This document shows positions 8,216 through 56,555 of a DNA stretch of 64,000 nt, in pieces; within the stretch, counting starts at the first letter, position 1, and each line of letters begins with the position of its first letter. The stretch spans positions 620,001-684,000 of the forward strand of contig NZ_JARVCO010000002.1 of the NCBI RefSeq assembly GCF_034531395.1, written 5' to 3'. The DNA is from Pontiella agarivorans (GTDB lineage Bacteria; Verrucomicrobiota; Kiritimatiellia; Kiritimatiellales; Pontiellaceae). The notes under the pieces were generated by a model. It saw nothing but the letters and a program-made list of their open reading frames with translations. It did not search any database and had not been told where the DNA came from. A program made the translations under genes and the position numbers.

Positions 8216-9739
8216 ATGATGAAAAGTATGATCGTATTGATGCTGACGGCATTATCCATCCATGCCGCAGAACGGCCCAACGTGGTTATCATTTATGGTG
8301 ATGATGTGGGGTTGGGTGATGTGGGGGCGTATGGTTCGGAAATGATTCCGACGCCGAATATCGATCGGCTTGCGGCGGATGGGCTTCGGTTTACGGATGG
8401 ACATTGCGCGGCGGCAACATGCTCGCCTTCGCGTTTTTCGATGCTGACCGGTATTCATGCTTTCCGTGAAGGGGTGTCGATTTTGCCGCCGAATGCGCCG
8501 CTGAGTATTTCCACTGAAATACTGACGCTGCCCAAACTTTTTCAGCAGGCCGGTTACACAACGGGTGTGGTGGGAAAATGGCATCTGGGTATCGGGGCCG
8601 AAGACGTGGAAACCAACTGGAACGGGGATGTGAAACCGGGGCCGCTGGAGATCGGGTTCAATAAATCTTTTTTGCTTCCATCGACGAACGATCGGGTGCC
8701 GTGTGTTTATCTGGATGGACATCGGGTCGTGAATTACGACCCGGATGACCCGATTTATGTGGCAAGAAAAATTGAGGATGTTCAGAAAAAAGGCAGTACG
8801 CAGTATCCGGACGGGAAAACGAACCGAGATGCGATGACCTATTATCAGAGCACACACGGGCACGACAACAGTGTGATTGGCGGGATCGGCCGCATTGGCT
8901 ACATGTCGGGCGGAAAGAAAGCGCTGTGGAATGATGAGACCATGGCGGATGAATTTGTGAAGCAGGCAAAAGCTTTTATTACAGCGCATAAAGACAAACC
9001 GTTTTTCCTCTATTTCGCCTCTCAGGATGTTCATGTTCCACGTGCGCCGCATCCCCGTTTCCAGGGAAAAACCGCTCTGGGCTATCGCGGAGATGCGATG
9101 GTGCAGTTTGACTGGTCGACCGGCGAAATTATGAAAACGCTGGATGAGCTGGGATTGACTGAGAATACCATAGTTATTTTTTCATCGGATAACGGACCGG
9201 TTTATGATGATGGCTATGATGACGGGACCACGGTGAGAACATCGGAAGCGGAGTCGGATCGCGGGCATGATGGATCCGGGATTTACCGCGGCGGGAAATA
9301 TCAGATCTATGAAGGCGGAACACGCGTGCCGTTTATTATTCGCTGGCCGGCACGCATCAACCCCGGCGTATCCGATGCTTTGGTGAATCAGATCGATTTT
9401 ATGGCTTCGTTTGCCGCTCTGCTTAATCTTGAAATTCCGGCTGATGAAGCGGGCGACAGCCGGAATACACTGGCCGCATTTCTTGGTCAGGATAAAGAAG
9501 GTCTTCCGTTTATGATCGAAGAAGCGGGCCGTTCGGGCCGTGCTTTGCGTGTCGGCCCCTGGAAATATATTCAGGAGTCGGTCAGCAGGAAACGGAAGAA
9601 ACCCGGTCAGCCGGCGCAACTGTATAATCTGGCGGTTGATCCCGGAGAGCAGCATAATATTATTACTGAACATCCCGAAAAAGCCGACGCCATGGAAAAA
9701 CAGCTGGTAGAATTGATGACCGTTCCCGGGATTAGATAA
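8216..9739 (+). CDS. Type I sulfatase (FGly-dependent), secreted
   Basis: A 507-residue sulfatase. Signal peptide 'MMKSMIVLMLTALSIHAAE'. The formylglycine motif is intact: Cys69 in CSPSR followed by 'FSMLTG'. Metal and catalytic residues are present: 'IYGDDVGLGD', 'GKWHLG' (Lys, His), 'SSDNGP' and 'GGKYQIYEGGTRVP'. The Cys must be converted to formylglycine by a maturase not found in this window. An AGGAG site lies 7 nt before the start. Its stop overlaps the next sulfatase's ATG by one base, so the two are translationally coupled. It probably removes ester sulfate from algal polysaccharide; the exact S1 subfamily cannot be set by eye. Confidence 0.93.
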   Translation: MMKSMIVLMLTALSIHAAERPNVVIIYGDDVGLGDVGAYGSEMIPTPNIDRLAADGLRFTDGHCAAATCSPSRFSMLTGIHAFREGVSILPPNAPLSISTEILTLPKLFQQAGYTTGVVGKWHLGIGAEDVETNWNGDVKPGPLEIGFNKSFLLPSTNDRVPCVYLDGHRVVNYDPDDPIYVARKIEDVQKKGSTQYPDGKTNRDAMTYYQSTHGHDNSVIGGIGRIGYMSGGKKALWNDETMADEFVKQAKAFITAHKDKPFFLYFASQDVHVPRAPHPRFQGKTALGYRGDAMVQFDWSTGEIMKTLDELGLTENTIVIFSSDNGPVYDDGYDDGTTVRTSEAESDRGHDGSGIYRGGKYQIYEGGTRVPFIIRWPARINPGVSDALVNQIDFMASFAALLNLEIPADEAGDSRNTLAAFLGQDKEGLPFMIEEAGRSGRALRVGPWKYIQESVSRKRKKPGQPAQLYNLAVDPGEQHNIITEHPEKADAMEKQLVELMTVPGIR

Positions 9740-42159: not shown

Positions 42160-44004
42160 ATGAAGCTGTATGGTCTCATTGCGGTCGTTACCGGGTTCTT
42201 AAGTCAGGCCTGTATGTGCAGTCCAGGGGGTGAACCTGCAAAGGTTACGGTTCATCTTCTGGACGAACAGGTGCTCGGTGAAACATCGGAGCTGGATCGC
42301 AGTACGTTTTTTAATGTGCACAGCAGTTATACCGGTGCCGCATTAACGGCTGACGATCTGGAACAATTGAAGTCGCTGAACGTGGGATTCGGTCGTGCTT
42401 TCGATGGACCTTTCAGCGGTCATCAGAATGGAACGCCTTATCCGGACACGGCAGTGATCAGGACACGGGCGCCGGGAGTTATTGCCAGAGCTAAGGCGGA
42501 TCCGCTGTATGCCTATCGCACCACGCGGCGCATTATCACGGATGAGCCGGGAACCGTATTCAATATGCAGGATGACCCTGCAGAAATGGCACGGTATGCT
42601 GCGGATATCCTTGAGTATAATTATGAGGATGATTTCCGGCCTGATTTTTATTCCCCGATTTCTCTGCCTTTCGTCGCTGCCGGGAAATATGGCGAGGACC
42701 AGGCGGCCGTTCGGGAACGTATGACTCAGGTCATCGCCAGGATCGGCGAGGAAATCGATCGGCGCGGGCTTTCGACCCAGGTGATTGGTTATACGAGTGC
42801 CTGGCCGATGATGCATTTCTGGGATTTCGGGCATTGGCATGGGCGAATGAAAATGTTCATGGATGTGGCCGGGGAGCATATTGACGCCATTGATTTTATT
42901 CTGATGGATGCAACGCAGTATGAAAAGGACGACAGCCGCCGAAGCGGCAGCCGGGTTGAGGCGCTAATGGATCTGGTTGAAACCTATGGGGCCATGAAAT
43001 GGGGAAAACCGAAACCTTTTGCCTTCAGTGAATATGGTGATGTTTCTTCGGGCTGGCCGGAAGGGGATACCTATTCTCCGGCACGCAGTTCGGCGGAGCT
43101 GAATGCATACAACCATTTTCTTTTTTCTCTGCTTGGCCGGGAAGATCGGTTACTTATCGCGGTACCGTTTATCACAACGAAAAGTCCCTGGTTTTATAAA
43201 AATCCGAAAAACCGATGGCAGCCGTTTTCGGCGGATCTCTGGCGGCCGGATCCTGAAAGCATCGTGGACAACAATCCGACCCGTTTTCTGGAAACCGAAA
43301 AGATGGAGTTCTATCGCCTGTGGTGCGATGTGAAAGGCCGGCGTGTATTTACTGAATCAACTGATCCTGATGTTGCGGTTTATGCTTTTGTGGATGGGCC
43401 GGATGTTTATATTTGTCTGAACAGTTTCAAGGAGGAGCAGCATCCGGTTTCGCTTGTGCTTCCCGGGCAAAACGCTGAGCCGGAAAGGGTAGAGATCAAA
43501 CGCATGTTCATACCCCGGCAGCAGGCCGTGCAGTACACGGTAGAAAGGACCGGCATATTGCCCAAGGAGCTTGTTCTGGAGCCGCATGAAACAAGGATTG
43601 TCCGGATAACGTATTCAACTCCCGTGGTTTCCGGGCGCACGGTAAAAACCAGGACGTACTATAGTGATACCTGCCTGCAACCTATTGTTGCTGATCAGCC
43701 GGTTGAGTTCTGCATAAATGGTGTAGTTGCCGATGCGCCAACTGCGGCTTCCCTGAGGGTTTCCTTTGCCCGAGAGCACGATCGTTCAAAAAAACCGCTG
43801 CTGACCGTGAATGGCCAGTCCATTGAGTTTCCGGATAATTGGATGGGCGATGATCAGGCCAACCGGAAGGGCGGATTTTTCGGCGCCATCCCGGTATCTG
43901 TTCCGGACGGTATATTACAGACCGATAACAGGATCTCTCTTATCTTTTCTGACGATGGTGGCCGTGTAAGTACGGTTGTTCTGGATGTACACTCCGGAAA
44001 TTAA
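42160..44004 (+). CDS. GH86-like lipoprotein lacking the acid/base glutamate
   Basis: A 614-residue GH86 paralogue. The N-terminus 'MKLYGLIAVVTGFLSQACMC' looks like a lipoprotein signal. Alignment to the GH86 at 24422 is clear ('IGYTSAWPMMHFWDFGHWHGRMKMFMDVAGEHID', 'RSGSRVEALMDLVETYGAMKWGKPKPFAFSEYG', C-terminal 'SIEFPDNWMGDDQANRKGGFFGAIPVSVP'). The nucleophile Glu291 is kept (FSEYG). At the acid/base position the family's 'YNEPF' reads 'ISLPF', so Leu169 replaces Glu and Ser168 replaces Asn. The SYHIYD motif is also lost (FILMDATQ). Frame intact. It could be a binding protein or use a different acid. Confidence 0.8.
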   Translation: MKLYGLIAVVTGFLSQACMCSPGGEPAKVTVHLLDEQVLGETSELDRSTFFNVHSSYTGAALTADDLEQLKSLNVGFGRAFDGPFSGHQNGTPYPDTAVIRTRAPGVIARAKADPLYAYRTTRRIITDEPGTVFNMQDDPAEMARYAADILEYNYEDDFRPDFYSPISLPFVAAGKYGEDQAAVRERMTQVIARIGEEIDRRGLSTQVIGYTSAWPMMHFWDFGHWHGRMKMFMDVAGEHIDAIDFILMDATQYEKDDSRRSGSRVEALMDLVETYGAMKWGKPKPFAFSEYGDVSSGWPEGDTYSPARSSAELNAYNHFLFSLLGREDRLLIAVPFITTKSPWFYKNPKNRWQPFSADLWRPDPESIVDNNPTRFLETEKMEFYRLWCDVKGRRVFTESTDPDVAVYAFVDGPDVYICLNSFKEEQHPVSLVLPGQNAEPERVEIKRMFIPRQQAVQYTVERTGILPKELVLEPHETRIVRITYSTPVVSGRTVKTRTYYSDTCLQPIVADQPVEFCINGVVADAPTAASLRVSFAREHDRSKKPLLTVNGQSIEFPDNWMGDDQANRKGGFFGAIPVSVPDGILQTDNRISLIFSDDGGRVSTVVLDVHSGN

Positions 44005-44436
44005 TCAGCGTTTGTATCCGCTGTGATGGTGGCGTTGGACTGATCTCTGAGCATCAGGCAGGCCTGCTGAAGTCGGATTTCGGTAGCGCCGTCTGAACTC
44101 GGTGGGTGGAAGACCGGAAAAGGAACGGAATTTCCGGGAAAAGTAGAGCGGATCTTCAAAATGGATCCGGGCGGCAATTTCACTGACGGAAAGGTCGGTA
44201 TTGGTCAGTAGACGGCCGGCATGCTGAAGGCGGTGTTCCATCACATATCGGGCCGGAGGAACGGCGATCTGTTTGTTCCACAGCCTGCGGAATGTGGACT
44301 GCGAAAAGCCATGACGGCGGGCGAGGTGTGTGAAATCGACCGGTTCCGGCAGTCTGGATTCAAGTTCGTTGAGCAGCGATTGAAAGGCTTTTTCAGTACT
44401 GTTGTGTTCCCGGGCGGTTCGCACGCTGGAGCGCAA
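44005..44436 (-). CDS. AraC-family regulator, DNA-binding domain only
   Basis: A 143-residue protein, read from a TTG start. It contains both AraC helix-turn-helix motifs: 'VDFTHLARRHGFSQSTFRRLWNKQIAVPPARYVMEHRLQHA' and 'LSVSEIAARIHFEDPLYFSRKFRSFSGLPPTEFRRRYR'. The usual N-terminal cupin or sensor domain is missing. Upstream, the frame continues only about ten codons to a stop at 44464-44466. It ends directly beside the GH86-like stop and diverges from GH95. It may be a true single-domain regulator or the truncated tail of a longer one; likely controls the neighbouring hydrolases. Confidence 0.75.
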   Translation of the reverse strand: MRSSVRTAREHNSTEKAFQSLLNELESRLPEPVDFTHLARRHGFSQSTFRRLWNKQIAVPPARYVMEHRLQHAGRLLTNTDLSVSEIAARIHFEDPLYFSRKFRSFSGLPPTEFRRRYRNPTSAGLPDAQRSVQRHHHSGYKR

Positions 44437-44577
44437 GGAAATTTTTTTCAGCGAAACCGTTGTTCAGTAGCTTCTGTCAGGGCGGGTCTGTCTTTCCCCG
44501 GTCTGAAAAGTTAAGTGTTCCGTCGGCCTTGCGAATCCGGTATCTTTCCCCGGTGGAGATTTAGTGGAGACGATGGC

Positions 44578-46923
44578 ATGAAAACAGGTGTGATTCTTCT
44601 TTTGGGGGTTGTTGCGGCATGCAGTCAGGCCTCAGCCGGTGAACTGGTGCTGCGATACGACGAACCGGCGGAACAGTGGACCGATGCGCTTCCGGTCGGT
44701 AACGGTTCCATGGGCGCGATGGTTTTCGGGGGCATTGAAAAAGAGCGGATTCAGTTTAATCACGATACGCTCTGGGCAGGGAAACCGCATTCCTATGCCC
44801 GCGACGGTGCGGTTGACATCCTGCCGGAAATGCGCCGGCTTCTCTTTGCCGGAAAACAGAAGGATGCTCAGAAACTGGGTATGGAACGCTTTATGTCGGT
44901 TCCGCTTCGGCAGGCCCCGTATCAGCCGTTCGGAGATCTTTGGCTGGAGTTTCCTGCGGCTGGAAAAGTTAAAAACTATCTTCGCGAACTGGATCTGGAT
45001 GGTGCGGTGGCCACTACCGTTTATTCGGTTGACGGCGTTCAGTACACGCGCACGGTTTTTGCAAGCTGCCCGGATCAGATGATTGCGGTTCGGATCGAAG
45101 CGGACCGGAAGGGGGCGTTGTTTTTCCGGGCCGCACTTTCTTCTGAACATCAACGTGCAACCCGGGTCAGCCGGCAGGATGATACCACGTTGAAGCTGAT
45201 CGGAAAAGTGGATGCAGTAGACGTCGGCCGAAACGGGAACCGCATTCCTTTTGACGGAGCGGTTGAATTTGAGGCCCGCCTCCGGATTGATGTTGAGGAT
45301 GGAACTGCGACGGTTTCTGATTCGGGAATTGAGGTTTCCGGTGCAACGAAGGCAACGTTGTATCTGGTTGGCGGAACCTCGTACAAAAATTTCCAGTCAT
45401 TGGACGCTGATCCGGCCGTGTTGTGTGAAAAGGTCCTGGATGGAATCGGGGGTAAAAGCTATGTCCAGCTTCTCGCGGATCACCAGAAAGATCATCGCCG
45501 GCTGTTCCGGAGAACAACACTGAATCTCAACGGCAACCGATCGGCCGCGCTGACCACGGATGAGCGTCTGAGTCAGTATCAGTCGAATCCGGATCCCGAC
45601 TTTGCGGCGCTGTTGTTTCAATATGGACGTTATCTTTTAATTGCCTCTTCCCGTCCGGGAAGCCAGGCGGCCAACCTTCAGGGACTGTGGAATGAATCGC
45701 GCAAACCGGCGTGGGATTCAAAATATACACTGAACATCAATGCCGAAATGAATTACTGGCCGGCAGAGCTCACGGGTCTTTCCGAATGCCATGAACCGTT
45801 TTTTGATCTGATCCGGGATCTGCAGATATCGGGAGGTGAAGTTGCGGAAAAGCATTACGGGGCACGCGGCTGGGTGGCGCATCATAACACCGATGCATGG
45901 CGCGGTGCGGCACCGATCAATGCTTCGAACCACGGAATCTGGCCGGTGGGCGGAGCGTGGATGTGTACGCATCTCTGGGAACATTTTCTTTTTTCCGGAG
46001 ATCGGAAGTTCCTGGCCGAAACGGCGTATCCGCTGATGAAAGGGGCGTCGGAATTTTTTGTGGACTATCTGATTGAAGATCCGGTGTTCGGAAAAGGCTG
46101 GCTGGTGAGCGGGCCGAGCAATTCACCGGAACGCGGCGGGCTGGTGATGGCCCCGACGATGGACCATCAGATTATTCGTACGCTTTTCAATCAGACGGCC
46201 GAAGCAGCGAAGTTTCTGGGAAAAGATCCCGCCTTCAGAAAACAGCTGGAGGAAATGGCCGCCCGTATTGCACCGAATCAGGTGGGTGAAGCGGGACAGT
46301 TGAAGGAGTGGCTGTATCAAGAGGACCCCTTCACGGATCATCGCCATGTTTCGCATCTGTGGGGGCTGCATCCCGGAGCTGAAATCACACCGGAAACGCC
46401 GGAACTTTTTGCGGCCTGTAAACGAACGCTGGAACTTCGCGGTGATGCAGGAACCGGATGGTCCAGAGGATGGAAGGTCAACTTCTGGGCACGGCTGCGA
46501 GACGGTGACCGGATGAACCGGATTCTGTACGGCTTTTTTAATAATACGAGTGTGAAGGGCGGCGCTGGTTTTTATAACAACCTGTTTGATGCGCATCCGC
46601 CGTTTCAGATCGATGGTAATTTCGGTCTGACGGCGGGGATTGCCGAAGCGCTGGTGCAGTCGCACCTGCGTGATGTAAACGGACACTGGATTATTGATCT
46701 GCTGCCGGCGCTTCCATCGGCCTGGTCCGAAGGTTCGGTGACGGGGTTGCGTGCACGTGGAGGTTTCGAGGTTTCCATTCGCTGGAAAGACGGCACGCTG
46801 GTGCTGGCTGAGATAAAATCACTGAACGGAAATCCGCTCGTTGTGCGGATGGGAAGCAAAATCATCCGCACACAAACCTCGGCCGGAAAAGTCTACCTTG
46901 TTGAAAATAAAGATCTGAAATAG
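44578..46923 (+). CDS. GH95 alpha-L-fucosidase/alpha-L-galactosidase, secreted
   Basis: About 781 residues. Signal peptide '[20 protein letters not shown]'. GH95 (alpha/alpha)6-barrel hallmarks: N-terminal '[37 protein letters not shown]', '[32 protein letters not shown]', '[15 protein letters not shown]', 'GPSNSPE' (catalytic Glu) and '[14 protein letters not shown]'. Some GH95 enzymes act on alpha-L-galactose, which fits this galactan cluster. The ATG at 44578 is chosen because the signal peptide starts there and GGAGA lies upstream. It diverges from the AraC gene, so the intervening 140 bp probably holds the regulator's target. Confidence 0.88.
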
Positions 46924-46967
46924 CTGTGCCGGAGTTTTGCCGGAACAGAGCGCACTTTAACGTGATT

Positions 46968-46990
46968 CAAATGCCATTCATGGGCATTTG
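46968..46990 (+). terminator. Hairpin after GH95, possible terminator
   Basis: CAAATGCC-ATTCATG-GGCATTTG, perfect 8-bp stem, about 45 bp past the GH95 stop. Only a short T-rich tail follows. Confidence 0.45.
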
Positions 46991-47085
46991 GCTTTACAAC
47001 AGGGGCTGTTAAGTTAGGCTGGTTCGGGTACAGTTGCAGGATGATATTTTCCGACTCCGGCTTTAAAATAAGGATATTTTTTTAA

Positions 47086-49236
47086 GTGAAAACTGAACTT
47101 CGTGATTTTTGCGTAGACTATTCCGCATTCGCATCGCCTCTGCTGCGGACTCTGGATGAATCGCTGTCCAGAATGGCTGATGCCGGCCGGGCTGAAATGC
47201 TCGGCGATGCCCGCCCGAAGCTGGCCGATGTGCAGCACCGCCTTAAGATTCTGGTTGATAAACTGGAGGCACAGCAGGCCTATCTGATTATTTTCGGCCC
47301 GCTGAAAAGCGGTAAGTCAACCTTGATGAATGCCATCAGCGGAAGTTATGTCAGCGAAGTCAGCAGTCTTCCGGCTTATCCGTGTCTGGTTTATGTGCGG
47401 GACGGTGAACAGCAGGCGTTTTCAACCACGTCCTACGGGGGACAGTGCCTGGAAATCGGTGGTCGCGAAGAGCTCGAGCAACTGGTGGATACGAAGCATG
47501 GCGAACTGGCCGAGGAATTGAAAAAAGCGGAGGAAGCCGGCCGGGCATTTGATCCGGCCACTGATTATCCGGATGCGTTACGCCGGATTGACATCAGCCT
47601 GCCGGCTGCTGATCTGGCTAAATCCGGGGTGGTTCTCGTGGATACCCCCGGCCTCTACACCCGTATGAAGTTCGGGTATGATTTAATGACGCGGGATTTT
47701 CGTGATGCCGCTGCTTGTGCTGTGTTTGTGGTAAAAACTGAAAATCTGTTCCTGGAACAGGTGTTTGCTGAATTCAACAAACTGCTGGATATTTTCAGCC
47801 GGGTTTTCCTGGTCGTGAATATTGACGGGAACAAGAAGGACCTTGCGCCTGACGGTTCGCTGAGACCCAGTGTGGAAAGTGAATCGCCGCAGCGTGTGGT
47901 GGAAGCGTTTGAATCGCTTTCGATGGAAGCTCCATTACGAAAAGCCTTTGATGAGGGGCGGCTCAATATTTATCCGATTGATCTGCTCAGTGCTGCTTCC
48001 GGGCGTTTGGGGCCGGATCAGGAAAGTGCGGAAGGGGGGGCTTCGACCTTTGATGATTTTCTTTCGGACCTCAGCGATTACCTGAACAGCAGTGATTACC
48101 TGTATGAATTCCGGCGCGACAGTATTAATCAGGGCAATATACTGGCCGGAGAGCTGAAGGATGCCGTCACCGGTGAAGCCATTGAACAGCTGCGGGCCAC
48201 CTGTGAAGCGGATCGTCAGAAACGTGAGGAACTTTTGAAGCGGCAGGAGGCGGTGCGGTGTATTGCGGACCTTGACTGGAACGCTGTTTTTTCCGCCACC
48301 CGGAGGATGACCGTTTCTGAAATCAGTACGATGGTCGGCGATGCTGTTGTGCAATTGCGAAGCGGCCTCAGTAAAGTGCTTGATGAATGGTTTAAGTCGG
48401 AAAACAGTTTGAGTTCGTTGGGCGAAAAAGGATTTGCTGCAACGATCGAAAGCGAAGCGCAGCGGCTGGGAGAGCAGGCCCGCCGGATTATGCGGCGCTA
48501 TCTGGGCGGCGCATTTGCCGGAGCTGAACTGGAATCCGGAGCACGCGAAGCGTTGCGGCTGCTGGAGATTGATCTGGCCGGCATCAGCGGCGATTCTGTT
48601 CAACAGATGGGGTCTGACGAGACGTTTATTATCAAAAAATTTGAGCTGGATCCGGCTACGGTACCGGTTCGCCGCCGCTTTTTTGATTATCTGCTGTTTC
48701 GCAGTCCCGCAAAAATCCGGCGTCGGCTGTTCGGGGATCGCGGGAGCCGGACCATTCCGGTGAGCCACAAAGAGCGTCGCCTGGGGGATGAAGCCCGCGA
48801 ATTTCTGATTGTTCAGGTACAGGGTTTTGTGAAAAACAGTCTGGCGGATGCCATGGAAAAAGAGGCGGAGCTGTTGGCAGACCGACACACGGAAACGTTG
48901 CGGGACTCGGTTTTATCGAAACTCAAAACGGATGAGATCACGCTTACAGATGAACTCGAAAAGCTGGAAACAGAGATTGCTGAACTTGAACACCTGTTGT
49001 CTCTGACGGATGGCATGGCGGCGGCGGTTGAGGATTTCGATGGGCGCCTGTCCGCGATGCAGACCGCGCTGGAAGGTCCGGCGAACCGGGGAGCTGGATC
49101 CTTGGAAGTGACGGAAGCAGATTCAGAGATTGCAAATGATCCGGCGGGCGATAATAACTTGGATACGGGTGCGACAGAAACCGGCACCTCCGATTCGGAA
49201 AAAACCGATAACGATACGGAAGAAGGTAGGGGATAA
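47086..49236 (+). CDS. Dynamin-like GTPase
   Basis: A 716-residue large GTPase, starting at GTG. P-loop 'LIIFGPLKSGKSTLMNAISG' (residues about 66-85), G3 'VLVDTPGLYTRM', and G4-like 'VVNIDGNKKD'. A helical stalk follows, with a basic segment 'DYLLFRSPAKIRRRLFGDRGSR', then a coiled coil ('TLTDELEKLETEIAELEHLL') and an acidic, low-complexity tail ending 'DSEKTDNDTEEGRG'. Dynamin-like proteins bind and reshape membranes and include anti-phage and cytokinesis members. The next gene, a membrane P-loop ATPase, starts 2 bp after its stop, so the two probably act together. No galactan role is evident. Confidence 0.8.
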   Translation: MKTELRDFCVDYSAFASPLLRTLDESLSRMADAGRAEMLGDARPKLADVQHRLKILVDKLEAQQAYLIIFGPLKSGKSTLMNAISGSYVSEVSSLPAYPCLVYVRDGEQQAFSTTSYGGQCLEIGGREELEQLVDTKHGELAEELKKAEEAGRAFDPATDYPDALRRIDISLPAADLAKSGVVLVDTPGLYTRMKFGYDLMTRDFRDAAACAVFVVKTENLFLEQVFAEFNKLLDIFSRVFLVVNIDGNKKDLAPDGSLRPSVESESPQRVVEAFESLSMEAPLRKAFDEGRLNIYPIDLLSAASGRLGPDQESAEGGASTFDDFLSDLSDYLNSSDYLYEFRRDSINQGNILAGELKDAVTGEAIEQLRATCEADRQKREELLKRQEAVRCIADLDWNAVFSATRRMTVSEISTMVGDAVVQLRSGLSKVLDEWFKSENSLSSLGEKGFAATIESEAQRLGEQARRIMRRYLGGAFAGAELESGAREALRLLEIDLAGISGDSVQQMGSDETFIIKKFELDPATVPVRRRFFDYLLFRSPAKIRRRLFGDRGSRTIPVSHKERRLGDEAREFLIVQVQGFVKNSLADAMEKEAELLADRHTETLRDSVLSKLKTDEITLTDELEKLETEIAELEHLLSLTDGMAAAVEDFDGRLSAMQTALEGPANRGAGSLEVTEADSEIANDPAGDNNLDTGATETGTSDSEKTDNDTEEGRG

Positions 49237-49238
49237 CG

Positions 49239-50726
49239 ATGCGGGTATTTGATTTCTGGCGACACTGGAACGTACTGGAAAATCCATTCAGCGCCGAAGA
49301 GGCGACCGATGATCCGGTGTTTTTGCGCTTACTTTCCGAAGAATCCACTCATCCTGATTTCGCTAAAATTTACGGCACTCCGGAGCATCCCTCTTCAGCC
49401 ATCGTGTTCGGTGAAAAGGGCAGCGGGAAAACAGCACTGCGCCTGACGATGGAAAAACAGTATGCGCTGCATAATGAGAGCTCCGATAAGCAGCGCGTTT
49501 GGGTGGTGCGCTATGACGACCAGAATGCCGCACTGGATACATTTGCCAGCCGGTATAAAGAGGAGAACCCTTTGCGGCATATGCGGCTCGAAGATCATCA
49601 GGATGCCATGCTGGCACTTGCCGTGACCAAATTGGTGGATACGCTGATGGGCGAGCGGCCTGAGCTGCCGGGATTCAGTCGTATGCGTCGGCGTGTAAAG
49701 CGTATGAACCGTCGGAAACGGCTCGGCCTCTGTCTGCTTTCCGCACTTTATGACCAACCTAACAGTTTAACCGATCAACGTTTTGAGCGTCTTCGTAAAC
49801 TGGCGCGTATCCAGACCATGCAGGTGGCCGAATGGGTGGCGGCGGGCTTATTTGCGCTGATTGGTGCTCTTCTGTTGCTGTTCGGGGATTCTCTGGAAAT
49901 GCCGCGCTGGGTGTCTCTGGCGGTCGGCGGTATCGGGCTGGTGGGAGCGGCTCTGCTGGTTCTGCTGCAGGGCGCCGAATTTTTCCGGACACAGACGCTG
50001 GCAGCCCGCTTGCGGCGCGAAATCAAGACGGTCAGCCATACGACAGCGGATTTGGCCCGGAAGCTTCGGCTTATCGGGCGCACCCGGTCGGCCGGGATCG
50101 CGCTGCCGATGCCCGGGGATCATGACAGCCGGTATGAACTGAACCGGTTCCTGCTCGCGATTCTCGAGGAATTCGGCTACAGCGGAATGGTGGTGCTGGT
50201 GGATCGGGTCGATGAACCGGCCATGATCAACGGCGATGCGCAGAAGATGAAAGAACTGGTTTGGCCGATGCTGAACAACAAATTTCTGCAGCAGCAGCAT
50301 ATCGGCATTAAATTGTTGCTGCCTATTGAGCTTCGTTATCTGGTTCATCGGGAATCGGAAGATTTTTATATGAAAGCGCGGCTGGATAAGCAGTGTATGA
50401 TCGATCGTCTGGCCTGGTCCGGTTCGGCTCTGTATGACCTCGCCAATATGCGGCTTAAAGCCTGTTGCGAAAAAGGTGAACAGTCGGTTGTTCTGAGCGA
50501 TTTCTTTGACGATGATGTGGTCCTGCAGGATGTGTTGGATGCGCTGGGACAGATGCAACAACCGCGTGATGCCTTCAAGCTGCTCTATCAGGTGGTGCAT
50601 GAGCACTGTTCTTACACCCCGAATGAAGATCCGGTTTGGAAGATTCCGCGCCTTACGCTGGCTCAGGTTTCCAAGAATCAGGCGCGGCGTCTCAACGATA
50701 TGCAACGCGGCCTGCAACCGGCCTGA
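49239..50726 (+). CDS. KAP-like membrane P-loop ATPase
   Basis: A 495-residue protein. Walker A 'IVFGEKGSGKTALR' lies near residue 55. Two transmembrane helices ('WVAAGLFALIGALLLLFG', 'WVSLAVGGIGLVGAALLVLL', about residues 198-245) come next. A Walker-B-like 'SGMVVLVDRVDEPAMING' lies near 310-327. Membrane helices inserted between Walker A and B are the hallmark of KAP P-loop NTPases, a family that includes the T7-excluding PifA. The N-terminal 'WNVLENPFSAEE' is like bacterial ATPases of the ExeA/STAND type. Coupled to the dynamin-like gene; followed by a terminator, so the two form one closed unit. Confidence 0.65.
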   Translation: MRVFDFWRHWNVLENPFSAEEATDDPVFLRLLSEESTHPDFAKIYGTPEHPSSAIVFGEKGSGKTALRLTMEKQYALHNESSDKQRVWVVRYDDQNAALDTFASRYKEENPLRHMRLEDHQDAMLALAVTKLVDTLMGERPELPGFSRMRRRVKRMNRRKRLGLCLLSALYDQPNSLTDQRFERLRKLARIQTMQVAEWVAAGLFALIGALLLLFGDSLEMPRWVSLAVGGIGLVGAALLVLLQGAEFFRTQTLAARLRREIKTVSHTTADLARKLRLIGRTRSAGIALPMPGDHDSRYELNRFLLAILEEFGYSGMVVLVDRVDEPAMINGDAQKMKELVWPMLNNKFLQQQHIGIKLLLPIELRYLVHRESEDFYMKARLDKQCMIDRLAWSGSALYDLANMRLKACCEKGEQSVVLSDFFDDDVVLQDVLDALGQMQQPRDAFKLLYQVVHEHCSYTPNEDPVWKIPRLTLAQVSKNQARRLNDMQRGLQPA

Positions 50727-50764
50727 CGTTTCTGAACGGCCATGTTTTCCTGCCGTTAAAGTTC

Positions 50765-50813
50765 AAAGGGTCTGTTTTGTTTTCGTGCTCCGTCAGCAAA
50801 ACAGGCCTTTTTA
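50765..50813 (+). terminator. Rho-independent terminator after the dynamin/ATPase unit
   Basis: CTGTTTTG pairs with CAAAACAG, extended by AAAGG with CCTTT, and is followed by T. The 17-nt loop is large. The rest of the 318-bp gap to 51045 shows no gene. Confidence 0.75.
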
Positions 50814-51044
50814 TTTCCGACAGCGGATGGCCGGAGTACCCCGGTATATGGGTCGGTTTGTCCGTCTGATTCCTGCATGGCGGGAAGCTGAGGATACCGA
50901 GGCTCCGGTATCAATGCTGATCTGGGGAACCGAGCTGCATGCACACAGTAATTTAAAGGCTGTCCTGTGCATCTTCCGTGTCCTTTTCTTGCTTCGGCGA
51001 CGTTCTTTATCTAAATGTTTAGGTTCTCATGGAGGAGTTGTTGT

Positions 51045-53165
51045 ATGGAGATATGGAAAGTCGGACCCATTTTTGTGGCGATCATGTTATGTGCGGGCTG
51101 TGTACCGGAAGAGCAGACGATTGAGCAGAATAATGAAGTCTCAGCGTCTGAACGGCCGGCAGAGACTCCGGAAAAAAACTCAGCGGAAGAGGAAATTCCA
51201 CAGGAAACGACAAGTGCTGTCGATGCTGCAGCTGCGGTGCCGGTGGATGCGGGAGACCGGGAAGCAACCCGTTCTTTTCCGGTTGAGAAGGAGCCGCGTT
51301 CCATTGATTGGAATAAGCCGTATATTGTGGTTGAGCCGCATACGGCGCGGGCGATTGACGGGGTAACCAAGGTGGATCGGAAGCGCTATTTCAGCATTGC
51401 AGATGGCGGGATTAATTTTGACCGGCGTGTACCGGAGGATAAATATGATTATCTGGTACATGAGTTGGGAATTCACTTCGGGCGGTCGCTGGGGCTGGTG
51501 AAGTATCCGGCTTCAAAGTTGAAGGAAGATCCGAAAAAAGCGGGATATACCGATCTGACGCCGCTGATGCAGGCGAAGCCGCAGGACGGTTCAGCGAAGC
51601 TGAAGGCTGATTTCGGGGATAATCTGGATGTGGCCATGCATGGGGCGCATAATGCCTATCCGGAATATATGGGACGTCATGAAACGGCGGATTCGATGCG
51701 GGATGCCAAGCATCCGCAATATATCCCGGAGAATATTGATGCTGCTGCGCTGCTGGCGGCGGCGGTGCTGAAGTTTAATTATACGGACTTCACGCGGCCG
51801 CGGTATTATGAACTGGTGAATGAGCCGCACTGGTCGTTTTTCAATGATCAGCATCTGGCGGACTGGCATCTGAAAACACGTGAGATGGTGAAGAAGGCGA
51901 CTCCGGAAGTGCAGGTGGGGGGGCTGTGTATGTCGGTTTGTTATTTTTACCGCAATAACTATCGCGGTTTTCAGGGAATGAAGCAGTTCATTGACCATAC
52001 GAACGGGGAGATGGATTTTTATTCGTATCATGTTTATGACTATCTGCGCTGGCGGGACGGGGAGTATAAAGGCCGCTTGCAGTCGGGTCTGCCGCTGGAA
52101 GGTACGCTGGATCTGGTCCCGAACTACACTATGAATGCATTCGGGAAAACAGCCCATATCGTGGTCAGCGAACAGGGCGGTTATAACGGCGAAGCGCCGA
52201 AGGGTGATTTTGACGGTGAGCTGGTGGCCTCACAGATTTTGAGCAATGCATATCCGCAAGCGGATCACGATTCGTGGGATATTGAAATGAAAAAACGGTC
52301 CATCGTGAGCTTTGGTCATGTCAGCTCAATTATTGCGAACACGCTGGCGTTTATGGATCATCCGCACACCGTGCAAAAGGCGGTGCCTTTTATTCTTTCC
52401 ACCACCTGGAACTGGGGACCGAAATATTATGCCCAGCTTTATGTGGCAAAGGATTATACGGATGAGAGTGAGTGGGTGGAGCAGGATACACTGAATTTTT
52501 ATCGGTTTTTCCGCGGGGTTGACGGGCACCGGGTGAAGGCGCTCTGTTCCGATCCGGATTTGCAGACCCGTGCTTTTGTGCATGAAAACAAACTGTATCT
52601 GGTCATCAATAATCAGAGTTTTGATGGGGAATCGATTGATCTCTACGGCATTGAAACCGGCGCGGTTGAGGTGCGGCGTCTCGGGCGGAATCCGGATTTC
52701 ACGATGTCGTATGTGGAGGAGAAAATCGCCACGCCGGATGTGCTCGAAATTGCGGGCCGGGAGTCGGTGATGCTGGTTGCCGATTATGGTGAACCGATCA
52801 AACCGACGCGGGCGGTCAATGAAGTGGTGTGCTATGGCGATAAAGTGGCGGTGCCGGTTTCGGATGCGGAGTTTAAGATTAAAATTCCAACGCTTGGAAA
52901 TATCGATTATGCGCAGTTGCGGGTGGCTGTCACCCGTGCGCCAGGTCAAAGCGTGGAGCCGCTGATCACTGTAAATGGCAGGGAATTAGAGGTCCCGCTG
53001 GAGGATTCGGCCGGGCGTTATACCGATAAAGAATATGCATCGACCAAACTCATCTATGTAGATCCGAAAATTCTGAAATCGACCAATAAGGTAAAGGTTT
53101 CTTTTCCGGATGGCGATGATGGGGCTGTGGGTACGGCGGTGTTGCGTGTGGCGGTGAAAAAGTAA
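51045..53165 (+). CDS. GH86 beta-agarase/beta-porphyranase, lipoprotein
   Basis: About 706 residues. Lipoprotein signal with lipobox LCAGC (Cys near residue 19), an acidic Glu/Ala/Thr-rich linker (about 20-85), the GH86 barrel, and C-terminal beta domains. Both catalytic residues are present: acid/base Glu260 in 'ELVNEPHWSFF' and nucleophile Glu376 in 'IVVSEQGGYNG', with 'DFYSYHVYDY' between. The ATG at 51045 is used because GGAGGAG lies 8 nt before it and it starts the signal. First gene of the second galactan cluster, 13 bp before a sulfatase. Contains a perfect TTCCAA palindrome at 52885. Confidence 0.86.
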   Translation: MEIWKVGPIFVAIMLCAGCVPEEQTIEQNNEVSASERPAETPEKNSAEEEIPQETTSAVDAAAAVPVDAGDREATRSFPVEKEPRSIDWNKPYIVVEPHTARAIDGVTKVDRKRYFSIADGGINFDRRVPEDKYDYLVHELGIHFGRSLGLVKYPASKLKEDPKKAGYTDLTPLMQAKPQDGSAKLKADFGDNLDVAMHGAHNAYPEYMGRHETADSMRDAKHPQYIPENIDAAALLAAAVLKFNYTDFTRPRYYELVNEPHWSFFNDQHLADWHLKTREMVKKATPEVQVGGLCMSVCYFYRNNYRGFQGMKQFIDHTNGEMDFYSYHVYDYLRWRDGEYKGRLQSGLPLEGTLDLVPNYTMNAFGKTAHIVVSEQGGYNGEAPKGDFDGELVASQILSNAYPQADHDSWDIEMKKRSIVSFGHVSSIIANTLAFMDHPHTVQKAVPFILSTTWNWGPKYYAQLYVAKDYTDESEWVEQDTLNFYRFFRGVDGHRVKALCSDPDLQTRAFVHENKLYLVINNQSFDGESIDLYGIETGAVEVRRLGRNPDFTMSYVEEKIATPDVLEIAGRESVMLVADYGEPIKPTRAVNEVVCYGDKVAVPVSDAEFKIKIPTLGNIDYAQLRVAVTRAPGQSVEPLITVNGRELEVPLEDSAGRYTDKEYASTKLIYVDPKILKSTNKVKVSFPDGDDGAVGTAVLRVAVKK
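52885..52899. repeat. Dispersed palindrome TTCCAA-CGC-TTGGAA (inside GH86)
   Basis: Perfect arms, read here as I-P-T-L-G, a third reading frame compared with the tyrA and GH2 copies. Confidence 0.7.
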
Positions 53166-53178
53166 GGAATAAAAAAAG

Positions 53179-54549
53179 ATGAAAATATGGACAATGCTGA
53201 TGGGTTGGCTGGCGGTTTCTGTGCTGGCGGCGGAGAAGCCGAATATTGTTTTGATTCTGGCGGATGATCTGGGTTTTGCGGATGTCAGTTTTAACGGGTG
53301 TACAGATTTCAGAACGCCGAATGTTGACCGGCTGGCGAATGAGGGCGTTCGTTTTGAAAACGGCTATGCAAGCCATTCGTTCTGTGCACCGACGCGGGCG
53401 GGTCTGATGACGGGGCGGTATCAGCAGCGTTTCGGTTTCGAGACCAATCCGGCGTATGCGCCGCTGGATGAAAAATCAGGTTTGCCGGCATCGGAAACCA
53501 CGATTGCGACGCGCCTGAAAAAGGCGGGATATAAAACGGGGCTGGTGGGCAAATGGCACTTAGGTATGAGCAAGGTGCAGCACCCGATGAACCGGGGTTT
53601 TGATTTCTTTTTCGGAATGCCGAGTGGGGGGCATGATTACTTTGAGGTAAATTCCCGTGATCTGGCGGACAGTTATAAACTGCCGCTGATCGATAATGAA
53701 AAATTTGCCAATGTGGAAGGGTATCTGACGCATCAGCTGACGGACCATGCGCTTAAGTTTATTGAGCGGAGCAAAGATGATCCGTTTTTTCTGTTCCTTT
53801 CTTATAATGCACCGCATGCCCCATGGCAGGCTCCGGAAGAAGCGGTTGCACAGTTTTCTCATATTGAAAGTAAGCAACGGCAGATTTATGCGGCGATGGT
53901 TACCGAAATGGATAAGGGCATCGGGCGAGTTCTGCATGCCCTCGAAGCGTTCGGCCTGCAGAAAAATACGCTGGTCTTTTTCCTGAGTGACAATGGCGGG
54001 CCGCATCCGGGAAGCGTTACGGATAACGGTCCGTTTCGCGATGGGAAAGGTGCGGTTTATGAGGGCGGGGTGCATGTTCCGTTTGTGGCGTATTGGCCGG
54101 GTAAAATTCCGGCCGGTTCCACATTTGAATGGCCGGTGATTTCTATTGATATTGCTCCGACTATGGCCGCACTGGCGGGGGTGGAAAAAGGAAATATGGA
54201 AGGCGAAAATCTTTTTCCGTTTATGACGGGAGAACAGACGGATGCGCCGCATGAAAATATCTATTTTCGGCGTCGTGATGGAGCGGCCTGGGCGATTGTC
54301 AATAAAGACGGAAAAAAGCTGGTGAAGGCCGACTGGACGAATGAGGTGAAGGAGTTCTTTAATCTGAAGAACGATGCCGGCGAGCAGAATGATTTGTATC
54401 AGTCTCCGGAGCAGGCGGCTGTGGTGGAGCAGCTTCAGAACGCGTGGGATGAATGGAATAAAGATAATATCCGGTATCAGTTCTGGGATTATCCGGACCA
54501 TAAAAAGCATCAGAAAGAACTTTACGAAAACCAGAGAAACGTTCGATGA
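53179..54549 (+). CDS. Type I sulfatase (FGly-dependent), secreted
   Basis: A 456-residue sulfatase with signal peptide 'MKIWTMLMGWLAVSVLA'. Formylglycine motif intact: Cys69 in CAPTR, followed by 'AGLMTGRYQQRFG'. Also 'ILADDLGFADVSFNG', 'GLVGKWHLG', 'NAPHAPWQAP', 'LSDNGGPHPG' and 'DGKGAVYEGGVHVP'. All catalytic residues are present, in contrast to the protein at 9739. It lies between a GH86 and a GH115-like gene, with its stop overlapping the next start, so probably desulfates a galactan such as porphyran or agar. Confidence 0.94.
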   Translation: MKIWTMLMGWLAVSVLAAEKPNIVLILADDLGFADVSFNGCTDFRTPNVDRLANEGVRFENGYASHSFCAPTRAGLMTGRYQQRFGFETNPAYAPLDEKSGLPASETTIATRLKKAGYKTGLVGKWHLGMSKVQHPMNRGFDFFFGMPSGGHDYFEVNSRDLADSYKLPLIDNEKFANVEGYLTHQLTDHALKFIERSKDDPFFLFLSYNAPHAPWQAPEEAVAQFSHIESKQRQIYAAMVTEMDKGIGRVLHALEAFGLQKNTLVFFLSDNGGPHPGSVTDNGPFRDGKGAVYEGGVHVPFVAYWPGKIPAGSTFEWPVISIDIAPTMAALAGVEKGNMEGENLFPFMTGEQTDAPHENIYFRRRDGAAWAIVNKDGKKLVKADWTNEVKEFFNLKNDAGEQNDLYQSPEQAAVVEQLQNAWDEWNKDNIRYQFWDYPDHKKHQKELYENQRNVR

Positions 54550-56555
54550 AGTGGATTCTTCCGATTTTTGGAATCGTTGCGGCGTCACGGGTTTTCGGGC
54601 TGACGCTGACTGCGAATGTGGATCTTCGCGATGAGTCCGGTTCGGAGGCTGTGGATTACGCGGTAACGGCGTTTGAAAAAGATCTGCAGCGGAAACTCGG
54701 GTTTCCGGTTCCGGGAGAGGCAACGGGGCATTTTACGTTCCGGATTTCCAGGGATTGGAAGGCGTTTGACCGGCATCGGATTAAAGTTTCTGATTCCGGG
54801 GTGACGATTACGGGATCCGATGAACTCGGTTTGATCCACGGAATTTATTCGTTTTCAGAAGATGTGCTGGGCATTGATCCGTGCATCTATTTCACGGGAA
54901 TTGTCCCGGAGCGGGTTCGAACACTGGATGTTCCGAACGGGTTGACGGAGTCGAAACCGTATACGTTTACGCACCGGGCGATGTTTGTGAATGACGAGGA
55001 TCTGATTATCGGATTTCAGATGGAGAATCAGTCGTATGGCATGAATCCGGAGTTTATGGAAAAGCTCTATGAAACGATGCTTCGGCTGAAAATGACGGGG
55101 GTAATTCCTTCGACGCTCGTTTTGGCTGATGAGCCGCATCTGGTGCTTGCTTCGGATATGGGCCTTTATATCAATCAGCATCATGCGGAACCGCTGGGCA
55201 GTGTGCCGTTATATTGGCCGAAGAATATTCCTTATTCGTGGTCGACGCACCGGGAGCATTTTATTGATTTCTGGTCCGATGCGATTAAGCGGCAGAAGGG
55301 GAGAAACGTCATCTGGACGCTGAACTTCCGCGGACTGCTGGATCGTGCATTCTGGGATGATGATCCGGCGATGTCGCGCAAAAGTTCGATGGAGGAAAAG
55401 GCCCGGGTGGTGAATGATGTGATTCGTACGCAGTATGAACTGCTGAAGGAGCTGACCGGCGAGGAGCATCCGCTGATCTGCGGTTATCTGTGGGGTGAGT
55501 TGAGCCGGCTGTACAGTTCCGGCCTGCTGGAATATCCCGAGGATACGATGCTGCTGTTTTCTGATTCAGGGCATGGGGTTATGGGCGACTGGAACTGGAA
55601 GCTGGCGGAAAAGTGTGATCTGAAAATGGGGATCTACCAGCATGTTTCGTATCACAACCGCAAAACGCATATGCGTATTAATGCGATTCATCCGGATACA
55701 TTCCAACATGAAGTGGGCCGTGCGGTTGAGTATGGAATGACCAATGCGATTGTGCTGAATGTGGGGAATTTCAAGGAGAAGATATTCGGCATTCGCCAGA
55801 TGGCAACGTATATGAATCATTTTGAGGAATTTCAGTCCTGTGAAAACGGCGACTGGTATTTTGACTGGTATGCGAAGCATGTGCTGGGAACAACACAGCC
55901 CGCTGTTGCGGATTCATATCGTGATTTTTTTGCATGCCCGTTTCTTTTTTCCAAGGATCGGAAAAACTCCGGCGATGAATATTTTTTCTATTATGTGGAG
56001 CAGATGCTGAACGGGGCTTATCAGAATGAGGTGGACCGGAAGCTGATGAGGCAGGATCTTTTCAGCTCTTCAGAGGAAAAGTGGGAGGTTGCGCTGGAGC
56101 GGGCTTATGACTGTCGCCGTTTTCTTGCTGGAAATGTGCTGGATTTTTACGAGGCGGATTTGGTGGGCCCTACACTGAAGATGCGGCATTTAACGGGGAT
56201 GGCGGTTGATTTTACAGCATCGCTTGAGCATTACCTGAATAAAGAGTGGCATAAGGCGCAGCTGGATGCCTATCAGGCTTTGCTGCATGTGCGTGAAGCG
56301 TTGAAAGCGGAGGAGTGGATTGAACAATCCGGCTGGGGACGGTTTGAGGGGTGGTATGATCACGATGAAACAGCGCGGACGTGGCATATTGAACGGCTGC
56401 TTGAGCACTATATCGACCATCTGAAAGATCTGAATTATTTCAATCTGGATTATTCTGCGCGGAATCCGAAAACGCCGGGGCTGGATTATAAATATCAGCC
56501 GTATTTTGAAAGTGAATACCGCGATGAGCTGATCTGGATGACCAATGGGGAATAG
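54546..56555 (+). CDS. GH115-like protein, secreted
   Basis: A 669-residue protein with an N-terminal signal ('MKWILPIFGIVAASRVFG'). GH115-type segments are clear: 'VTITGSDELGLIHGIYSFSEDVLGIDP', 'TESKPYTFTHRAMFVNDEDLIIGF', 'ADEPHLVLASDMGLYINQHHAEPLG', 'FWSDAIKRQKGRNVIWTLNFRG', 'GIYQHVSYHN' and 'NAIVLNVGNFKEKIFG'. Known GH115 enzymes are xylan alpha-glucuronidases of 800-1000 residues. This one is shorter and sits in a galactan cluster, so its substrate is probably different. The ATGA overlap couples it to the sulfatase. Confidence 0.75.
   Translation: MKWILPIFGIVAASRVFGLTLTANVDLRDESGSEAVDYAVTAFEKDLQRKLGFPVPGEATGHFTFRISRDWKAFDRHRIKVSDSGVTITGSDELGLIHGIYSFSEDVLGIDPCIYFTGIVPERVRTLDVPNGLTESKPYTFTHRAMFVNDEDLIIGFQMENQSYGMNPEFMEKLYETMLRLKMTGVIPSTLVLADEPHLVLASDMGLYINQHHAEPLGSVPLYWPKNIPYSWSTHREHFIDFWSDAIKRQKGRNVIWTLNFRGLLDRAFWDDDPAMSRKSSMEEKARVVNDVIRTQYELLKELTGEEHPLICGYLWGELSRLYSSGLLEYPEDTMLLFSDSGHGVMGDWNWKLAEKCDLKMGIYQHVSYHNRKTHMRINAIHPDTFQHEVGRAVEYGMTNAIVLNVGNFKEKIFGIRQMATYMNHFEEFQSCENGDWYFDWYAKHVLGTTQPAVADSYRDFFACPFLFSKDRKNSGDEYFFYYVEQMLNGAYQNEVDRKLMRQDLFSSSEEKWEVALERAYDCRRFLAGNVLDFYEADLVGPTLKMRHLTGMAVDFTASLEHYLNKEWHKAQLDAYQALLHVREALKAEEWIEQSGWGRFEGWYDHDETARTWHIERLLEHYIDHLKDLNYFNLDYSARNPKTPGLDYKYQPYFESEYRDELIWMTNGE

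What the first reader, a model, noticed from the sequence alone, without database searches (positions are those of the whole stretch)
47086..50726. Dynamin-like GTPase coupled to a KAP-like membrane ATPase: candidate undescribed membrane-acting system
Seen: a 716-residue GTPase with dynamin-type G motifs, basic stalk segment, coiled coil and acidic tail. Its stop lies 2 bp before a 495-residue protein with Walker A, then two membrane helices, then a Walker-B-like DRVDE. A terminator closes the pair. Known: KAP NTPases have membrane helices between Walker A and B, and PifA (a KAP protein) excludes phage T7; bacterial dynamins can mend or remodel membranes, also in phage defence. Inference: the two form one system that senses or repairs membrane damage, possibly anti-phage. 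The pair sits between two catabolic clusters with no metabolic link.
Basis: partly seen in the sequence, partly recalled or inferred. Interest (0 to 1): 0.7.

Follow-up and report, generated by a model that had tools for sequence, protein, structure and literature searches.

The report
Dynamin paired with membrane-anchored AAA+ ATPase
Two neighbouring bacterial genes encode a membrane-shaping dynamin-like GTPase and a membrane-embedded AAA+ ATPase; the pair recurs in three lineages, but each gene usually lives alone, in ordinary chromosomal surroundings, so it looks more like a cell-membrane maintenance machine than an anti-virus system.

Summary
In detail: a 716-aa bacterial dynamin-like protein (DLP; Dynamin_N 1e-10, BDLP/mitofusin fold) lies 2 bp before a 495-aa ATPase with a two-helix membrane hairpin between Walker A and B, and a terminator hairpin follows. 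The KAP label fails: no PF07693 match, and profile comparison aligns only the P-loop. The ATPase is AAA+ of ORC/TnsC/RdrA type, distantly related (E 6e-30, far below cut-off) to the validated anti-phage protein DS-41. The pair, in the same order, recurs in three lineages (window genus, an Opitutales genus, a second Verrucomicrobiota lineage), and co-occurrence exceeds chance (p about 6e-4). But 45 of 50 ATPase-bearing genomes lack this DLP, 13 of 16 DLP-bearing Opitutales-order genomes lack the ATPase, and the ATPase is present in 11 of 11 genomes of one Kiritimatiellota family, among housekeeping genes. Neither gene was found on viral contigs or plasmids. In another Opitutales family the same DLP is followed instead by a short DLP that also carries a two-helix hairpin. 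Best reading: a soluble DLP working with a swappable membrane-anchored NTPase in envelope maintenance. An anti-phage role is possible but has no contextual support.

The parts
47086..49236 (+). bacterial dynamin-like protein (BDLP/mitofusin-type), 716 aa
   Evidence: Dynamin_N 9.8e-11; Foldseek to BDLP1 2j69 4e-14; VIA-align to mitofusin-1 Z 18.7; 21-member PVC family
47296..47319 (+). G1 / P-loop GPLKSGKS
   Evidence: present in all 21 relatives
47641..47652 (+). G3 DTPG
   Evidence: present in all 21 relatives
47812..47841 (+). G4 region VVNIDGNKKD, atypical form (VVNxDxxKxD in the family)
   Evidence: 20 of 21 relatives match the pattern
48664..48738 (+). conserved basic/hydrophobic tip segment (PVRRRFFDYLLFRSPAKIRRRLFG), candidate membrane-binding paddle
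   Evidence: conserved in family consensus; position before the terminal helix matches the BDLP paddle (inference)
48760..49074 (+). long C-terminal trunk helix (residues 559-663), then a disordered acidic tail
   Evidence: AF2 model
49239..50726 (+). membrane-anchored AAA+ ATPase, Sll1717/DS-41 superfamily, 495 aa
   Evidence: NCBIfam NF053860 6.2e-30 and NF047389 4e-12, both matched by 44 of 44 relatives; AF2 pLDDT 90; VIA-align to ORC, TnsC and RdrA Z 11-12.7
49410..49433 (+). Walker A GEKGSGKT
   Evidence: near-invariant in 44 relatives
49824..49973 (+). two-helix transmembrane hairpin (residues 196-215 and 223-245)
   Evidence: hydropathy: two peaks in 34 of 44 relatives, at least one in all; helices in model
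50193..50219 (+). Walker B VLVDRVDEP
   Evidence: D322, R323, D325, E326, P327 invariant in 44 relatives
50562..50579 (+). PRDAFK, sensor-2-like motif of AAA+
   Evidence: P442-K447 invariant in 44 relatives; sensor-2 assignment is inference
50765..50811 (+). intrinsic terminator-like hairpin closing the pair
   Evidence: RNA fold -22.8 kcal/mol with T-rich tail
46962..46997 (+). hairpin between the upstream GH95 gene and the pair, probably its terminator
   Evidence: part of a -15.9 kcal/mol fold; suggests the pair is its own transcription unit

Best explanation
The pair encodes a two-part membrane machine. A soluble BDLP/mitofusin-type dynamin binds the inner face of the cytoplasmic membrane through its basic tip and, on GTP turnover, tethers, seals or reshapes it. 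Its partner is an oligomeric AAA+ ATPase fixed in the membrane by a two-helix hairpin; it recruits the dynamin and remodels or disassembles its polymer. The service is envelope maintenance or stress repair of the host cell, not primarily phage defence. Shown: the gene pair, the predicted folds, the membrane hairpin, purifying selection, recurrent operon-like linkage, and a different two-helix-hairpin NTPase (a short dynamin) in the partner slot in another family. Inferred: physical interaction, the ATPase acting on the dynamin, oligomerisation, and the physiological role.
For: DLP-then-ATPase order in three lineages: window genus (G000, G025), Opitutales genus g101 (G162, G477, G510) and L074, with gaps of 2, 90 and 36 bp. 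Co-occurrence beyond chance: 3 of 6 DLP genomes hold the ATPase against a base rate of 10/289, p 6e-4. Paired DLPs form one side of a tree branch (86/84). In four Opitutales loci the same DLP is followed by a 450-453-aa Dynamin_N protein; the three complete copies have a two-helix hairpin, so the partner slot tends to hold a membrane-anchored NTPase. Folds. Purifying selection. ATPase in ordinary chromosomal contexts and core to one family. Most bacterial DLPs are operon pairs, thought to need heterotypic partners (PMC6104087); DynA has a membrane-surveillance role (PMC8844932).
Against: The ATPase mostly occurs without this DLP (45 of 50 genomes), so it must have a function that does not need it; the DLP occurs without the ATPase in 13 of 16 Opitutales-order genomes. 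Paired ATPases fall at two separate places in the ATPase tree, so pairing is not a fixed property of one clade. In G069 both genes are present but not adjacent on the contigs held. Nothing shows that the proteins touch, and no phenotype is known.
Confidence: 0.45

Rival explanations
1. The pair is an anti-phage system: the membrane AAA+ ATPase senses infection (as its remote relative DS-41 may) and triggers the dynamin to seal or disrupt the membrane.
For: NF053860 DS41_1_antiphage matches all 44 ATPases (best 6.7e-34); DS-41 is experimentally validated in E. coli (PMC13092281). AAA+ fold resembles RdrA of RADAR (Z 11.9). The DLP resembles LeoBC/LeoA in the PADLOC set (1.8e-7). DynA delays phage lysis (PMC8844932). 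Patchy distribution of the pair.
Against: All scores lie far below the DS-41 cut-off (105 against 370 bits). No defence-specific neighbour in the window or the paired loci scanned; the matches there are a chromosomal RmuC and generic ABC ATPases. Neither gene found on viral contigs or plasmids, and the ATPase not on phages. ATPase is core in one family (11/11). Native codon composition.
Confidence: 0.2
2. Two independent genes: the ATPase is a lone envelope or regulatory AAA+ protein of PVC bacteria and the DLP a lone membrane protein; their adjacency is an operon of convenience inherited together or moved between lineages.
For: Most occurrences are single. ATPase sits alone beside recN, the ddl-fts cluster, gyrB/parE-like, phosphomannomutase or trpE genes (neighbours named by eye from sequence).
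Against: The same order in three lineages at 36-43% protein identity, with co-occurrence above chance, and partner replacement by another two-helix NTPase.
Confidence: 0.25
3. A KAP-type membrane NTPase coupled to dynamin.
For: Same general architecture: membrane helices between Walker A and Walker B.
Against: No PF07693 match in P0002 at E up to 5 and none in the window genome, while the same search finds KAP in 38 of 145 genomes; hhalign against 19 KAP proteins aligns 53 P-loop columns only, 16% probability. The KAP set has IDELDRCRP at Walker B; this family has VDRVDEP.
Confidence: 0.04

Closest known systems
Bacterial dynamin-like proteins: BDLP1 (Nostoc), Cj-DLP1/2, LeoABC, DynA, IniA; mitofusins
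   Same: G domain, helical neck/trunk, basic tip before the long terminal helix; genes commonly paired in operons (PMC6104087)
   Different: The partner here is not a dynamin but a membrane AAA+ ATPase; the G4 motif is atypical; sequence similarity to named DLPs is confined to weak profile matches
DS-41 (DefensePredictor, E. coli) and the Sll1717 P-loop ATPase family (NF053860, NF047389)
   Same: Near full-length profile match (residues 14-463), Walker B DxxDE, W/L and PRDAF motifs
   Different: Scores far below cut-offs; this family carries a two-helix membrane hairpin, is chromosomal and core in some PVC lineages, and lacks defence context. The DS-41 protein itself could not be read here, so whether it has a hairpin is untested.
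RdrA (RADAR), TnsC, ORC/Cdc6 AAA+ ATPases
   Same: AAA+ core, VIA-align Z 10-12.7 over 236-309 residues
   Different: No known membrane hairpin or dynamin partner in these (own knowledge); sequence identity 9-14%
KAP NTPases (PifA, Kidins220)
   Same: Membrane helices inserted between Walker A and Walker B
   Different: No profile membership; different Walker B and C-terminal motifs

Membership tests
Bacterial dynamin-like proteins (P0001) | Dynamin_N G domain above the curated cut-off | tested here: met
   42.4 bits against 27
Bacterial dynamin-like proteins (P0001) | BDLP/mitofusin-type helical trunk with terminal helix folding back | tested here: met
   Foldseek 2j69 4e-14, mitofusin-1 VIA-align Z 18.7 over 370 residues; the G domain of the model has low pLDDT
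Bacterial dynamin-like proteins (P0001) | GTP hydrolysis and membrane binding | not testable with these tools
   needs biochemistry
KAP NTPases (P0002) | PF07693 profile match | tested here: not met
   no match at E up to 5; none in the window genome; hhalign 16%, P-loop only
KAP NTPases (P0002) | membrane helices between Walker A and Walker B | tested here: met
DS-41 anti-phage family NF053860 (P0002) | score above the equivalog cut-off of 370 bits | tested here: not met
   104.6 bits; 0 of 241 genomes over the cut-off
DS-41 anti-phage family NF053860 (P0002) | protects against phage | not testable with these tools
   needs plaque assays
Sll1717 P-loop ATPase family NF047389 (P0002) | score above 75 bits | tested here: not met
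   45.9 bits; remote superfamily relation only
AAA+ ATPases of initiator/RdrA type (P0002) | AAA+ core fold with lid | tested here: met
   VIA-align Z 11-12.7 to ORC, Cdc6, TnsC, RdrA; Foldseek alone gave no E below 0.001, so the fold call rests on the second aligner
AAA+ ATPases of initiator/RdrA type (P0002) | ring oligomerisation | not tested
   no complex prediction available

The most novel reading that the evidence does not exclude
A bacterial membrane AAA+ ring acts directly on a mitofusin-like dynamin polymer, as Vps4 acts on ESCRT-III, and the DLP partner slot is filled in different lineages by unrelated two-helix-hairpin NTPases: a new kind of two-motor membrane-remodelling machine in the PVC bacteria.
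Probability: 0.2. Interest if true: 0.75.

Novelty: new variant of a known kind. Interest (0 to 1): 0.5.

Why it matters
Bacterial dynamins usually come as pairs of dynamins. Here the partner is a membrane AAA+ ATPase, and a related lineage uses a membrane-anchored short dynamin in the same slot, which suggests that what matters is a membrane-anchored NTPase beside a soluble dynamin. The ATPase family itself is widespread (361 matching stretches in genome contigs, most of the 80 listed ones from Phycisphaerae of the Planctomycetota), highly conserved, present in all sampled members of one Kiritimatiellota family and of no known function; a remote relative defends E. coli against phage. It offers a testable link between membrane maintenance in PVC bacteria and a defence ATPase superfamily.

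Tried and rejected
KAP membership: rejected by sequence. Fold search listed no KAP protein, which does not exclude one. A direct profile comparison with the one soluble DS-41-like protein found in the phylum (L179) was weak (24%, 78 columns); the DS-41 relation therefore rests on NCBIfam scores. A conserved partner for the lone ATPase in Phycisphaerae: neighbour clustering found only lineage-specific synteny, no recurrent partner. Mobile-element origin: no matches to plasmids (both proteins), phages (ATPase only searched) or viral contigs (both). The split ATPase in G025 is a one-base gap in a run of G; both halves remain under strong purifying selection, so it is recent or a sequencing error. 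Paper searches found no description of such a pair and none naming Sll1717.

Full report
Observation. The two ORFs, the 2-bp gap, the dynamin motifs, the two membrane helices between Walker A and Walker B and a terminator hairpin are all present at the stated coordinates. The window genome has one copy of each gene. A same-genus genome (G025) has the pair at the same place: the same GH95 gene lies upstream and the same porphyranase-like gene downstream, with about 6 kb of extra genes in between. Between the two species dN/dS is 0.10 for the dynamin and 0.05-0.06 for the two halves of the ATPase, so both are functional. GC3 is close to that of the neighbours.

The dynamin. P0001 matches Dynamin_N. 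With 21 sequences in the alignment its model (pLDDT 72.5, G domain poorly modelled) matches BDLP1, IniA, the Campylobacter DLP pair and mitofusins. A basic, hydrophobic segment before the long last helix is conserved and lies where BDLP has its membrane paddle (inference). PADLOC gives weak matches to LeoBC/LeoA.

The ATPase. P0002 is not a KAP protein by any sequence test made. All 44 aligned relatives match NCBIfam DS41_1_antiphage and Sll1717, P0002 itself far below the cut-offs. Its model (pLDDT 90) matches ORC/Cdc6, TnsC and RdrA AAA+ domains by VIA-align (Z up to 12.7), although Foldseek alone gave no match below E 0.001. The invariant PRDAFK motif near the C-terminus looks like an AAA+ sensor 2 (inference). 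DS-41 is one of 42 systems that protected E. coli in the DefensePredictor study (PMC13092281).

Distribution. In 289 genomes of the phylum the ATPase is in 10, the DLP (strong matches) in 6 and both in 3, p 6e-4 by Fisher's test. In 177 genomes of the order of G162 the DLP is in 16 (strong), the ATPase in 3, all 3 adjacent to the DLP and all in one genus. Of 50 ATPase-bearing genomes from the wider collection only 5 hold the DLP, 4 of them adjacent; some of those genomes are the same as ones in the phylum search. All 11 genomes of family f18 have the ATPase. These tests do not correct for kinship.

Trees. Paired dynamins fall on one side of a branch (86/84); paired ATPases fall at two places, the window protein apart from the Opitutales clade, with several weakly supported forks. 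The tree program warned of long-branch joins in the dynamin tree. A single origin of the pair with later spread, or two origins, both remain possible.

Partner slot. In four loci of Opitutales family f83 (L208, L209, L212, L213) the same DLP is followed by a short Dynamin_N protein; the three complete copies have a two-helix hairpin near their C-terminal third, and L213 is cut by its contig end. Pfam was run on two of the four. The remaining f83, f60 and f55 loci without the ATPase show no recurrent NTPase partner.

Context. Flanks in the window are porphyranase-domain proteins, GH95, sulfatase and GH115. PADLOC finds nothing beside the window pair; beside the other pairs it lists only an RmuC homologue and ABC ATPases that match generic ATPase models. 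ATPase neighbours elsewhere are housekeeping genes, identified by eye.

Conclusion. The pair is real, selected and recurrent, and its parts are membrane-acting by their families. The most economical reading is an envelope-maintenance machine in which a soluble dynamin uses a membrane-anchored NTPase partner; the anti-phage reading rests on remote homology alone.

Noticed in passing
window 42160-56555: The pair interrupts what looks like one red-algal polysaccharide locus: two porphyranase-domain proteins, GH95, sulfatase and GH115.
   Followed up: partly
L208:8606-9967, L209:8057-9418, L212:4590-5942: A short Dynamin_N protein with a two-helix membrane hairpin follows the same dynamin family in Opitutales family f83.
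   Followed up: partly
L179:1105-2736 (-): A soluble 543-aa DS-41/Sll1717-like ATPase in G223, the genome that also carries the membrane ATPase; neighbours look like a REP-type transposase-like gene and a DUF4238-like gene (by eye).
   Followed up: no
L039:3339-9080 (-): In G076 the lone ATPase lies directly upstream of ddl, ftsQ, ftsA and ftsZ-like genes (by eye).
   Followed up: no
L035, about 8260-8270 (-): One-base gap in a run of G splits the ATPase frame in G025; both halves remain under purifying selection.
   Followed up: yes
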